A DNA stretch of 64,000 nt from Rhynchonema sp. JSB1_4 (lineage: Eukaryota > Nematoda > Chromadorea > Monhysterida > Xyalidae), in assembly GCA_030248065.1 (NCBI GenBank), contig JASAMV010008676.1, forward strand, positions 44,730 to 108,729, given 5' to 3'. Positions 6,201 through 15,200 of the stretch are shown here, one piece after another. A program made the translations under genes and the position numbers. The notes under the pieces were generated by a model, which searched no databases, was not told the DNA's origin, and saw only the letters and a program-made list of their open reading frames with translations. Position 1 is the first letter of the stretch; every line of letters starts with the position of its first letter.

Positions 6201-9200
6201 TGTGTGTGTGTGTGTGTGTGTGTGTGTGTGTGTGTGTGTGTGTGTCTTCACATTCACAACATGGGGTCGATAACGGTGCGAGCCTCACATGCGTGGGTAT
6301 ACTGTATGTGACCAATTTACACTGCAAACAAACAATTCCAAAAATAAGCATTATGTGTGGAATCCAACCATCAGTCCTGAAGATCAACGGCTTCCATTCA
6401 GGTTTCGCGTCACATTTGATCGTTGCGTTTATCTGATCGGCCAACGCCTGACATTCGTCCTGATATTGACGATAGGTGTCCACTGAACGTCGATTGATGA
6501 CCGCCACCTGCAACACGTTAGGCTTGAGTTTAGGCGTCGCAGTTTAGGCTTTTGGGCTTTTGAAAGACTTGCAGACGCCTGTGGTCCTAATAGGTATACG
6601 TGAGGTAAGTACCAAATGTGTTTTTGGAGGAATAACATGAGCCCTCATAACTCATTCGTGACGCAAACTGGTGAACTGGCAAGGGCCATGTCCTGAGCCG
6701 GAGCCCCATGCGTGAACATATAGGACGATATTACGAAATTAGTAACACTCCCGATAAATTATATCAGATCAGTTCATGTTTCTGACTGTGTTCTCGGACA
6801 TAATGAGCCACAACTTTTCGTGCGAAAGGAATTTTTTTGTTTACTTTTGAAAACAAGATATCTACGTGTGAAATACGTATATAGTTTCTCCGTTGTCCTA
6901 ATTGGATGTGGTAGACAGCAACTTGTCTCAAATAACACCCACGTCACTGTATCGCAGCGACGTAGTGATTTTGCGAATTCAGATAAACTCAGAGATTCGC
7001 TTTTTTCAAAAAAAAAGTTTTCATTCCCAGAAAATGTCGAGTGTCAAACTTTGTGTCGCTCCATGGGAGCCGGCAGCTATGGCATGCACGCTACAAAGTC
7101 AAAGTCTGCGGCCAACACAAAACTGTTTTCTGCCGGGTGGGTGAAATAAACAAGCTTTTAACTCATTTTCCGTTCAGTTTAATCACATCACATAAAGTCA
7201 TCCAATTTAAAAATTCAACAGATCTTGATCTTTCTAATTTAGGTGAAGATGTCGAAATTCTGCGAATCGTGTTGGAGCGTGCCAGCCTGAATTACACAAT
7301 GCTTCAAATGCCTAACCCCGAATGGGGATCGCTAAGCGGCGATAGTGTTACGGGTAGATTCCACAGAATCATGTTAAATATGTACTGTCCTATCCCTGGG
7401 CCCAAAGCAAGTCTCTGAGATCTAACCGAAAACGGAAGCACGATGCCTTCAAGTACTTGAAGCGCCGGTTCTCAGGTTGTTTCGCATGAGACAACGCCTA
7501 AGGCTGCGATTAGATAAATGCGGAATGCGGAAATTGGTGAGCAGATAAATGCGGAATGGTAAATTTCTGCATACCGCATTCCGCGTTTATCTGCTCACCT
7601 TTGCGGAGTGGCGCGTGCTTGGGTGACGATGACAACTTCCAGCGTGCTGACTTCAAATGTTGCGTGTTAACGCAAACAGCAACTGAGATGTTTGACCAAA
7701 AGCATAAATTTACTTGCAGAAATTCAAAATTCCGCAAAGGTGAGCAGATAAACGCGGAATGCGGAATGCAGGAAATTTGCCATTCCGCATTTATCTAATC
7801 GCGGCCTAAGCCAGGTCTCCAGTCGAAACTACACATTGTATAGTCTTTCGGATTGAAAACAGTCCAGAAGGCGGTATACAGAAAATGTTTCAACGCCTTG
7901 AAAACAGCAGTCATCGTCGTGGATGATAAACAACAGGTCGAAACATGCGTGCTGCTTGATGGCTGCTGTTGCGATGAAACATTTGCTGTATACTTTGTTT
8001 GGACCGAGAATAAAATGAAGGACTATATCACTGTAGATCGTCTATTCCACAGGAACTGAGCGAGCAAATGCGTGGCTTTCTTGAGCTTCTTATTATAATC
8101 CGGCACCTCAGATAATCAACTCACGGCTAATCCCATGTATTACCCTGTTTCTCACGCTCATTCAGGGCTGCGTGTGTGTTGACGAGACAATCGGACCACG
8201 TTAGGTGACCACTAAACAATTAGTCGTTTCTTGTCAGGTGAATTCTACAATGCGCTGAACAATGGTACGTGCGACCTGAGTCACAGTGGCTGGCTGTTAA
8301 CATCAATTCGTGAGTACCACTTTGACTTCAGCTACCCGTTTGCGCATCTGCACACAGAATTGGTCATGGCCGAAAGACATCCAGGTTGGCTGATGTTTCA
8401 AATAAACTGTAGGTACGTCTGCAATTTGAACGAAGAGAAACTTAAATTTCCAAGAATTTCTTGAAAGCTTTCTCGAAAATCGAAATCTGCAATTTCTGGA
8501 TAAAACTGATTTTTGATTACAAAATCTGAGGATTCCAGAAATTCGAATATTGCAGACATTTGGCAAGAGTCGGCGAAACTGACCAAACAATTCACGCCCT
8601 CCACGTTGTACGCTTTCTTTATGTCGTTCGTTGGATTGGCCCTGCTGATTATTCAGTTCGAAAAGATATTGCGTCCGATAAATAGGTTACTAGTGCATTT
8701 TTTATGTTTTTTATGCTGTTTCTTTATGCTTGCTTGTGAATTTTTATGTTGCGTTTCGCAGTATATTTGCAAAATGCATACAACTAAATTTGAACAATTT
8801 CAGACCCGCAACACGCGCACCCACGCCCTGGCACCTGACATTAGTTCTGTTCAAGCAACGCAACACCAATCTTCAACCCCACAGTCTGGCCGGTCTGGTT
8901 CCATCGATTTTATACCAATTTCTCGTCTTATGCTTCCGAAACCTCTACACCACCTATCTATTAGCGACGATACTACATCCGATGAAATTGAAGCCACTCA
9001 ACAGTCAAGCAGAGTTTCTCGAGAATCTATCACAAAATCGAACCCAATTAATTACGACCACATTAGCCAATATTTTCTTCGAGAGCATGCATCAACCGCA
9101 TAACAAGTTCTTCAGTGACCTGAAAGACATCAATGAAACGAATCCGGTTCTGGTGGAACAGAATCAAACGAAACTGATCGAAAAACTGCTCACTGGAAGG

Positions 9201-12200: not shown

Positions 12201-15200
12201 GCGTTGAAAGATGGTGAAATTCGCAAATTTTTCACCCCTTTTCAGCAATTATTGAATGTTATGAACGACTGAATCGGATTGAAGAACGATACAACGTCAT
12301 CTACGCCCCTTGTGTGGAACCTACACCAGACGGTGTTAAAAGCGTGACAGGCTTATCTATTCCCCATGTATTTGGAGCGTTTGTATTGCTGGGCGTGGGT
12401 TTTGTGACGGCTGCGTTTTGTTATGCGCTGGAAAAACTGATTATAATTGCCTGTATCAACTCGGAAACACGTGAGCCGACGTCATAATGAAATTCGACAA
12501 CATTTCCGTGAGACCATTCATATTTTTCGAAATTACACAAAATTGTGTGGTTTGAAGACACACAATTTTTTCATTTGAGCAGTCACATGATGTGACGTGC
12601 TCGTATATAGTCTGGGCGCAGCATGATAATCTATTTCCAAACAATTAAGAAAAAGAAATAAGCCAAATTGAAACATTACCTGCAACAACACATCCTTGCC
12701 AATCCTGTCCGGATATTTCTCAAAGAATCGCCGATAGGCGCACAGCTTCTCGCCGATGCCCTTGGTGAAATCGAAACGTTCGACCGAAAAGAACAGCTTG
12801 CCGCCGTCGATGCAGTTGGATTTGATCTGGAAGCTCATGTTCCGTTCGGGTGCATATCAGACGAAAGAGGCCGCGTGTGAACCTCTGTTGTATTGGTTGC
12901 ACAATGACTATATAAGAATTGGTCAAAGTTTTTCCCTGAATCGTAAAGAGGGAAAGTGACGGGCTGGTGACGTTGCGTTGCGTGATCGCACACAAAGCAT
13001 GTAGTAAAGAGAATGTTTCAGACCTGCGGCAACGTGGTTGATTTGCTGGATTACTTTCAGGTGAAAATGTTTTGTGAGAATCATAAATAGCACAGTGGTT
13101 AAGAGTGACTGAACGTGAAAATCAGGATTAATTTGATGAATTCTTATATGATCATTGTGCTACCAATACCCGACAGTGTACCCACTCATAGTAACCCTCT
13201 ATATTGTGAATATTTTCAATCCCTTAATCTAATATGTAAGATATTCTTAGTGGTGTGTATGACCGGCCCCGATCTCTTCACTATAAACATAAGGGTAGAC
13301 TGTTTACAGCATGTTAAAACAGACCGGCGCCAGTTGATGCAATTTCAAGGTTCACGGACCAACCACGTCATTATAAACAGGATTCAAAGCTATATTTGAA
13401 AAGATAAAGGAATCATTCCTAGACCCACCTCTTTTCTGACTTTCTCTGCCTGTTCCACGACGCTGTCACTGTGCACCAGGTCCAGGTATTCCTCATTCTT
13501 GATACTCACAGGGAAAACGCCAAGGGAGCAGGACCAGCCTGAAACATTATTGCGTAAGATTCGGGAACCAGTTTCGTTTGCAAATTTCGATGACTGCAAT
13601 GAAGCTTTTTGGTCGCCGTCGATAAAAAAAAAGTTGGACCCTAAAATGCGCGCTTTATCTGTAACCTTGATCCGACACGGTGTGCTTGTCGACTTTCGGG
13701 TCGTACGTGATCTTTGCGCCGTGCAAATGCGTTCGCACGAGTTCGATGAAGGATTCGCGATCCAGATGAGTTTGAAAACCGACCTGGAGCAAGATTGTGA
13801 AACATCACACAAGATTGTGAAATTTTATATATTTTTGTCACTCGACGTTTCTACTGACTAACAAACCTTCGCGAATCTGACGAGACCCCTGAGCACCGCC
13901 ATAGCGACCAGGTGGTATTTCTTGAAGAACGACTCCGGCGGTTGAAAGGGAATGTGCAGAAAGAAACCGGTCTGAAACATTAGATTCGGTGCAAAACATT
14001 TAATGTAAGAATATGCGGATTATCACGGACTTCGGCTGCACTGTACACTCACAAAAACAGCAGTGGGAAAACGTGGACGTTGGTAACAGAATTTTTCAGA
14101 TTTTTTTACCTTGCATTTGCATTTCATCATTACAAGTATTTCGATTTTGGGCCTCGTCTAGTTCGCGAAAAAGTAATACCGATGTTGGGGTGCTCGGCGG
14201 CTTTTTCGAAGAAAAAACTTTCCCGCTGCTTTTTTCCCAGATACTGCTTGTTCTCACCATATATTTGTGAGCACATCCCGTTGCCACATGTCTAACACAC
14301 CAATCACTCAATTAATTTTCAAACAAACTACATACAGTATATGTATACAAGACCAAAGTCACAGCGTGACCCAAAAGTACATCGCCTTCATGGTGTATAC
14401 CTCCAAATGCGGGTCGAGAAAGTTCATGATGAATCCGGTGAGCAGCAGGTGGTAGTCGTGGATCCAGACGAAATCCTGAGGTCGGCTGTTTCGCACTGCG
14501 TTGATCGCGAAATGATAGTTGACGCGCACGTACGCGTGCCAGTGTTCTTGCAGCACCTGTGTGTGTGTGTGTGAAACATCACACATGAGTGAACAATAGT
14601 GCACGGCACAGATAAAGCCAGCGGGACACACTTAGAGCGAACGTATATGTGAAATCCGGAAATAATTTGTTTGCAAATATGCAAAATTTTTCCGGAAAAC
14701 GCAAATGCAAACGCAAATTCAAATGCAAAAATAATGCGTTTTCCTGAAACATTTCCGGATTCCGAAACAGTGTACACCTCGCGCCAAAGTAACGTTTTCG
14801 AAAACAGTTTTGAAACATCACCTAATTGTCCTACCTTTGCGTCGTCATAGTCCTTGACAATGTATTCCGGCAGGTTGTGAAACGCCGGCCAGAACAGTCC
14901 ATTGCTGATGCCCCCGTAGTAGACGTTGTAATCATCGGAGCCCACAACCACGGGTGTCAGATTGTAATGGTGCTTGTTGTAGTTGCGCAGCACACCCACC
15001 AGCGACATTTGTTCCCTGAAAATCAGGGGCCGATGACGTCATACATATACTTTCATTGCATGATTTTAAAGGGAATTGCATACTTGATTTTCTTCTCCAG
15101 ATCATCGCCCTCGCATTCATCGGTCGTTGTTGGGTCCTGAAACATTATGTATAGTGAGTGGGTACCGGTCTTGTTCGGGGCGTTGGCTTGTCAGGCATGG

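What the first reader, a model, noticed from the sequence alone, without database searches (positions are those of the whole stretch)
6508..12679. Two complete receptor-channel genes nested head to tail inside one intron of a trehalose synthase gene, on the opposite strand
The host exons on either side join in phase (VLLQ at 12680 to VAVINRR at 6507), so the 6.2-kb gap is a genuine intron. It contains two full iGluR-like genes with their own start, stop and splice sites. This puts sugar metabolism or stress genes and putative chemosensory channels in a position to interfere by antisense transcription or shared chromatin.
Basis: partly seen in the sequence, partly recalled or inferred. Interest (0 to 1): 0.8.

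Follow-up and report, generated by a model that had tools for sequence, protein, structure and literature searches.

The report
Two receptor genes inside trehalose-synthase intron
In a roundworm genome, two sister genes for receptor-like ion channels sit inside one intron of the animal's trehalose-making enzyme gene, on the opposite strand; this kind of nesting is common in animals, but the two genes belong to an unexpectedly large receptor family in this worm.

Summary
The minus strand carries a nematode trehalose-6-phosphate synthase gene, modelled with 26 exons in the window. Its intron 17 is exactly 6508-12679: 6,172 bp, phase 0, five times its next longest intron. The coding join VLLQ|VAVINRR is ungapped in 18 of 18 fetched homologues. 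On the plus strand the intron holds two intact tandem genes, A (7034-10033, 420 aa) and B (10679-12487, 432 aa). They are 38% identical, share five introns in position and phase, and resemble ionotropic glutamate receptors without the amino-terminal domain (IR-like). Opposite-strand nesting is known and common (567 pairs in C. elegans; three genes in one human NF1 intron). Host and nested coding exons do not overlap and no transcript data were available, so antisense or chromatin interference remains inference. No signal peptide was recognised in A or B, nor in 7 of 8 relatives inspected. Overall: an ordinary arrangement, with a more interesting receptor family behind it.

The parts
280..21339 (-). 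Host gene: trehalose-6-phosphate synthase/phosphatase-like, 26 coding exons in the window (start codon at 21339; the low end of exon 26, about 280, is read by eye); it continues left of the window to about contig C5327:40601
   Evidence: Splice model; Pfam PF00982, PF18572, PF21141; C-terminal exons in L003 by tblastn; exon-26 donor sequence
12680..12826 (-). Host exon 17, ends ...GKDVLLQ
   Evidence: junction alignments
6508..12679 (-). Host intron 17, 6,172 bp, phase 0, gtaatg...gttgcag
6369..6507 (-). Host exon 18, starts VAVINRRSVDTYRQYQ
   Evidence: junction alignments
7034..7136 (+). Nested gene A exon 1 (ATG)
7243..7353 (+). Nested gene A exon 2
8238..8384 (+). Nested gene A exon 3
8556..8685 (+). 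Nested gene A exon 4 (TM1), 130 bp
8804..9199 (+). Nested gene A exon 5 (pore region, TM3, first part of S2), 396 bp
9422..9573 (+). Nested gene A exon 6, 152 bp
9810..10033 (+). Nested gene A exon 7 (TM4, stop)
10679..10913 (+). Nested gene B exon 1 (ATG)
11121..11264 (+). Nested gene B exon 2
11370..11499 (+). Nested gene B exon 3 (TM1), 130 bp
11563..11958 (+). Nested gene B exon 4 (pore region, TM3, first part of S2), 396 bp
12022..12173 (+). Nested gene B exon 5, 152 bp
12246..12487 (+). Nested gene B exon 6 (TM4, stop)

Best explanation
[quoted passage not shown] Shown: the intron, the two intact genes, their shared ancestry, and relatives in the genome. Inferred: the order of events (insertion, then tandem duplication), that each nested gene is transcribed from its own promoter, that the host intron is spliced out with both genes in it, and that the products are ligand-gated cation channels in sensory neurons, as the nematode IR GLR-9 is. 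Interaction between the units is expected to be weak or limited to some cells (polymerase collision, or nested-gene control elements firing a shortened host transcript as with ceh-10/polq-1), not pairing of mature coding mRNAs.
For: Intron and GT20 continuity. Two intact gene models with matching phases, shared introns and codon-position asymmetry. iGluR homology over the LBD-TM length: A to GluA2 E 1.7e-8, B to GluD1 2.3e-5, A+B profile to GluA2 4.7e-8. PF00982 matches in the draft genome only at this gene (2 matches, both its exons). Relatives: B finds 48 matches on 39 other contigs (counted), among them C811 (E 2.6e-6); the C811 member finds 107 matches, about 95 merged loci on 66 contigs, its own place included; a profile of five relatives without A and B hits iGluRs in the PDB (73 at E <= 10; the 60 listed are all glutamate receptors, best E 4.7e-4) and matches the A+B profile at 99.5%. 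Known parallels: PMC12274878, PMC4394429, PMC12087990 (passages).
Against: No transcript evidence. No signal peptide recognised in A or B, so how S1 would reach the outside is unexplained. Weak donor at intron 17 (rank 23 of 25). Whether related species have the nesting could not be tested. Pfam's Lig_chan score is below the curated cut-off for A and B. The listed matches of the C811 search do not include A and B; their tie to that cluster rests. Protein-database searches with B and with A+B found nothing. An assembly error inside the intron cannot be formally excluded.
Confidence: 0.85

Rival explanations
1. A and B are decaying copies (pseudogenes) parked in an intron.
For: No signal peptide recognised; some relatives elsewhere carry in-frame stops (3 of the 25 near-full-length matches, counted).
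Against: Both open from start to stop; 11 introns GT..AG in phase; three exon lengths kept exactly; third codon positions diverged far more than first and second (0.34 against 0.53 and 0.63).
Confidence: 0.06
2. The host is split: two TPS transcripts, one ending before and one starting after the nested block (alternative promoter inside the intron).
For: ceh-10/polq-1 in C. elegans works this way in some neurons (PMC12274878, passages); weak donor at intron 17.
Against: The GT20 domain runs across the junction, so neither half alone would be a complete enzyme; no second TPS was seen in the draft, although that search is exon-wise and caught only 2 exons of this gene. An additional short isoform is not excluded.
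Confidence: 0.06
3. Misassembly placed the receptor block in the intron.
For: Draft of 5,747 contigs; a perfect 492-bp TG tract at 5753-6244 in the next intron.
Against: No N in the window; the only repeat with both copies inside the block is a short inverted repeat at 7543-7607/7731-7796, besides one 57-bp match to 17522-17579; no second contig with PF00982 matches (limited sensitivity).
Confidence: 0.03

Closest known systems
Opposite-strand nested gene pairs, e.g. ceh-10 in polq-1 of C. elegans (PMC12274878)
   Same: Protein-coding gene wholly inside an intron of a protein-coding host, opposite strand, in a nematode
   Different: Two tandem sister genes instead of one; different genes; no expression data here
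NF1 intron with OMG, EVI2A and EVI2B (PMC4394429)
   Same: Several protein-coding genes in one intron, all on the strand opposite to the host
   Different: Here the guests are 38%-identical sister genes of one receptor family; no such relation is stated for the NF1 guests in the passage seen
Variant ionotropic receptors (IRs), e.g. GLR-9/W02A2.5 of C. elegans (PMC12087990) and divergent IRs of flies (PMC2924276)
   Same: iGluR-type ligand-binding domain and channel without an extended amino-terminal domain; divergent and lineage-specific; most divergent fly IRs are single-exon, and 22 relatives here are single open frames over most of their length

Membership tests
Opposite-strand nested gene | Guest CDS entirely inside one intron of a protein-coding host | tested here: met
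   A 7034-10033 and B 10679-12487 inside 6508-12679
Opposite-strand nested gene | Guest on the other strand | tested here: met
   Host minus, guests plus
Opposite-strand nested gene | Independent transcripts of host and guest | not testable with these tools
   No RNA data
iGluR/IR superfamily | Homology over S1, TM region, S2 and TM4 | tested here: met
   A residues 40-409 to GluA2, E 1.7e-8; B residues 46-415 to GluD1, E 2.3e-5; Pfam Lig_chan below cut-off for both, SBP_bac_3 above cut-off for B only
iGluR/IR superfamily | Hydrophobic segments at the TM1, TM3 and TM4 places | tested here: met
   Hydropathy peaks in both proteins
Variant IR (as against synaptic iGluR) | No extended amino-terminal domain | tested here: met
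   Proteins of 420 and 432 aa; iGluR alignment begins at residues 40 and 46. An unseen upstream exon is not excluded
Variant IR (as against synaptic iGluR) | Altered glutamate-contact residues and TM3 motif | tested here: inconclusive
   In the printed alignments the S1 Arg and the S2 acidic residue are kept in both; the S2 Thr aligns with Leu in A; SYTANLAAF reads LYTTYLLAT in A and LYAISVLAI in B. Which residues matter is recalled
Variant IR (as against synaptic iGluR) | Signal peptide for an extracellular S1 | tested here: not met
   None recognised by hydropathy in A or B; no dedicated predictor was available
Variant IR (as against synaptic iGluR) | Phylogenetic grouping with IR25a/GLR-7 or GLR-9 | not tested
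   No such sequences in hand; protein searches with B and with A+B gave no hit
Nematode trehalose-6-phosphate synthase | GT20 domain followed by T6PP_N and T6PP_C | tested here: met
   Pfam; best homologue Plectus sambesii 63% over residues 420-1131

The most novel reading that the evidence does not exclude
A and B are two members of a large, independent expansion of IR-like receptors in an enoplean nematode (about 95 merged loci in one capped search, 22 near-full-length single open frames, several tandem arrays, most inspected starts lying directly at the ligand-binding domain without a recognisable signal peptide): a chemoreceptor radiation in roundworms outside the rhodopsin-like receptors. 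The pair lodged in the trehalose-synthase gene could couple an osmotic or chemical sensor with osmolyte synthesis in the cells where the nested promoters fire.
Probability: 0.5. Interest if true: 0.65.

Novelty: new member of a known kind. Interest (0 to 1): 0.4.

Why it matters
The arrangement itself adds one clean case (two sister genes in one intron) to a well-known class and is a testable locus for host/guest transcription. The larger point is the family: C. elegans is reported to have 15 iGluR-type genes of which seven are IR-like (PMC12087990, passages), whereas one capped query here gives about 95 merged IR-like loci. That is not a gene count: fragments, alleles on separate contigs and copies with stops are mixed in. 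If confirmed with annotation and expression, it would show that IRs radiated in a second ecdysozoan lineage, and the missing signal peptides raise a concrete question about topology.

Tried and rejected
Protein-database searches for relatives of A and B gave none (E <= 0.001, E <= 0.01); that tool needs shared exact words, so this does not show absence. A plasmid-collection search was empty, as expected. No tRNA (bacterial settings) and no Rfam family at gathering thresholds in the window. Signal-peptide exon searches upstream of A and B gave one implausible hit for A and none for B, and none within the intron with a second scan. Stretches left of the window (contig 1-38499 in four pieces and 35000-44999) held no further copy of A or B; the one hit, E 0.91, was taken as chance. 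Ten paper searches (one search was only for the NF1 case, one search found no paper) listed no title that reports this nesting or an IR expansion in nematodes; I read the outline and passages of PMC12274878 and passages only of PMC2330155, PMC12087990, PMC2924276, PMC1657053, PMC4394429, PMC5797772 and PMC11526382, so a report could have been missed.
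Full report
What was checked. The window lies in contig C5327 (44730-108729 of 108,729 bases) of a 203.9-Mb draft of 5,747 contigs and holds no N. A splice model of the minus-strand gene gives 26 exons in the window, from the ATG at 21339 to about 280. Pfam finds one GT20 domain (E 6.2e-74), then T6PP_N and T6PP_C. C-terminal exons continue left of the window, found by tblastn with the Plectus and a metagenome TPS in L003. The gene is thus about 25.5 kb long and reads as one trehalose-6-phosphate synthase.

The intron. Exon 17 ends at 12680 and exon 18 begins at 6507, phase 0. 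The 6,172-bp intron compares with 68 to 1,234 bp for the other 24. Its acceptor ranks 4th and its donor 23rd of 25 by leave-one-out scores, so the donor is weak. The protein join is nevertheless secure: Pfam and the two printed PDB alignments run through it without a gap, and 18 of 18 fetched homologues (17 nematode, one metagenomic) have no gap in the 29 columns around it. I chose those 18 from 120 listed hits.

The nested genes. A has 7 exons and 420 codons, B has 6 exons and 432 codons. Their local alignment covers 400 columns with 152 identities and 4 gaps. Five introns are shared in position and phase; A has one more, near the start. Exons of 130, 396 and 152 bp are identical in length. 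Identity by codon position over 396 codons is 0.53, 0.63 and 0.34, as expected for old duplicates under selection on the protein. The stop codon of B lies 192 bp from exon 17, the ATG of A 526 bp from exon 18. No host coding exon overlaps a nested one.

What they encode. A matches GluA2 with residues 40-409 (E 1.7e-8); B matches GluD1 with residues 46-415 (E 2.3e-5). The two-sequence profile matches GluA2 at 4.7e-8. Pfam's Lig_chan matches below its cut-off for both; SBP_bac_3 passes its cut-off for B only. Hydropathy shows segments at the places of TM1, TM3 and TM4. There is no amino-terminal domain in the models. In the printed alignments the S1 arginine and the S2 acidic residue are kept, the S2 threonine is not in A, and the TM3 signature is degenerate (which residues matter is recalled). 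This is the plan of variant IRs rather than of synaptic glutamate receptors. Against filing them as finished receptors stands the lack of a recognisable signal peptide: none in the first residues, one implausible upstream exon for A and none for B, none inside the intron by a second scan. These are hydropathy scans, not a dedicated predictor.

The wider genome. Searching the draft with B gave 57 matches at E <= 0.01, 9 of them exons of A and B and 48 on 39 other contigs (counted). Searching with one relative (C811, 405 aa) gave 107 matches on 66 contigs, its own place included; merging neighbouring pieces leaves about 95 loci; 25 matches cover at least 340 of 405 residues, 22 of them without a stop. 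Only 103 of 403 first-look candidates were scored, so this is a lower bound for matches; it is not a gene count, since fragments, copies with stops and probable alleles (for instance the near-equal entries on C3061 and C3076) are mixed in. The list does not contain A and B; B did find C811 (E 2.6e-6). C811 carries five frames head to tail, one with a stop. A profile of five relatives, without A and B, finds iGluRs in the PDB (73 sequences at E <= 10; the 60 listed are all glutamate receptors, best 4.7e-4) and aligns with the A+B profile over 364 columns at 99.5% probability. Single relatives score poorly in Pfam: of four tested, one had SBP_bac_3 above its cut-off, one a sub-threshold Lig_chan, two nothing. 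In a tree of nine members, two of them partial, A and B group with C781 (100/99), A and B as sisters with 87/87, below the starred level; C781 is flagged as a long branch.

Starts of relatives. I picked eight and looked at their first methionine. All lie close to the start of the ligand-binding domain. Seven have no hydrophobic N-terminus by the threshold of 2.0 used; one (C1834) reaches 2.04. In two (C1834, C4337) the frame is cut by the end of the fetched stretch, so a more upstream start was not excluded there. One (C4781) has an acceptor-like site just upstream. So the missing signal peptide is probably not a defect of A and B alone, but this is a small sample with a crude measure.

The species. 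TPS groups with Romanomermis, Trichinella, Trichuris, Soboliphyme and a metagenome sequence (100/99 for the six rows; root at the midpoint, for drawing), although the highest single identity is to Plectus sambesii (63% over residues 420-1131; 60% over 861 columns). That points to an enoplean nematode (class names recalled); the genus is unknown. PF00982 matches in the draft only at this gene, but the search is exon-wise and caught just 2 of its exons, so a diverged second copy is not excluded. C. elegans has two (named in the listing).

What is known. In C. elegans 567 protein-coding pairs are in opposite nested arrangement, 5% of genes; co-expression is not rare; ceh-10 induces a shortened transcript of its host polq-1 (PMC12274878, abstract and passages). 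Human NF1 carries three coding genes in one intron, all on the opposite strand (PMC4394429, passages). An older survey found about 12 times fewer overlaps in worm than expected at random, with nested overlaps preferred (PMC2330155, passages). C. elegans GLR-9, an IR without extended amino-terminal domain, senses salts in a pharyngeal neuron and supports salt-stress resistance (PMC12087990, passages), and RNAi of both tps genes lowers osmotic resistance in an age-1 background (PMC5797772, passages). These last two make an osmotic link imaginable but do not support it for this locus.

Verdict. The arrangement is real and ordinary in kind: a new member of the class of opposite-strand nested genes, with two sister guests in one intron. 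The less ordinary result is that the guests belong to a large IR-like family in a nematode, most of whose inspected starts lack a recognisable signal peptide. I put interest at 0.4, mainly for that.

Noticed in passing
G000 contigs, e.g. C811:3321-12194 (five frames in a row, one with a stop), C3823, C4806, C1791, C731, C1235; L058-L061: Large IR-like receptor family: 107 matches (about 95 merged loci, 66 contigs) with one query, only 103 of 403 candidates scored.
   Followed up: partly
L045, L016, L051, L058, L059, L060, L061, L050 and window genes A and B: Relatives begin close to the ligand-binding domain; 7 of 8 inspected show no hydrophobic N-terminus, L060 is borderline, and in L060 and L061 the frame is cut by the end of the fetched stretch. 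A C..CPxPG-like motif follows the start in the five aligned.
   Followed up: partly
window 5753-6244: Perfect TG microsatellite of 492 bp in host intron 18.
   Followed up: no
window 25785-26333 and 56145-56692: Two inverted copies (97.6% identical) of a 549-bp element with inverted ends of about 165 bp, MITE-like; several other long palindromes, e.g. 33839-34935 and 24768-25580.
   Followed up: no
window 7543-7607 and 7731-7796: Inverted repeat, 95% over 66 bp, inside intron 2 of nested gene A, which at 884 bp is its longest intron.
   Followed up: no
window 57998-58294, minus strand: A 48-aa piece of an open frame matches the sodium:solute symporter family (PF00474, E 3.1e-8).
   Followed up: no
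G000, PF00060 and PF10613 matches, e.g. C2319, C163, C1727, C3170: iGluR-type exons elsewhere in the draft: 25 and 38 exon-level matches; the PF10613 model also rings in 10 of 14 control genomes.
   Followed up: no
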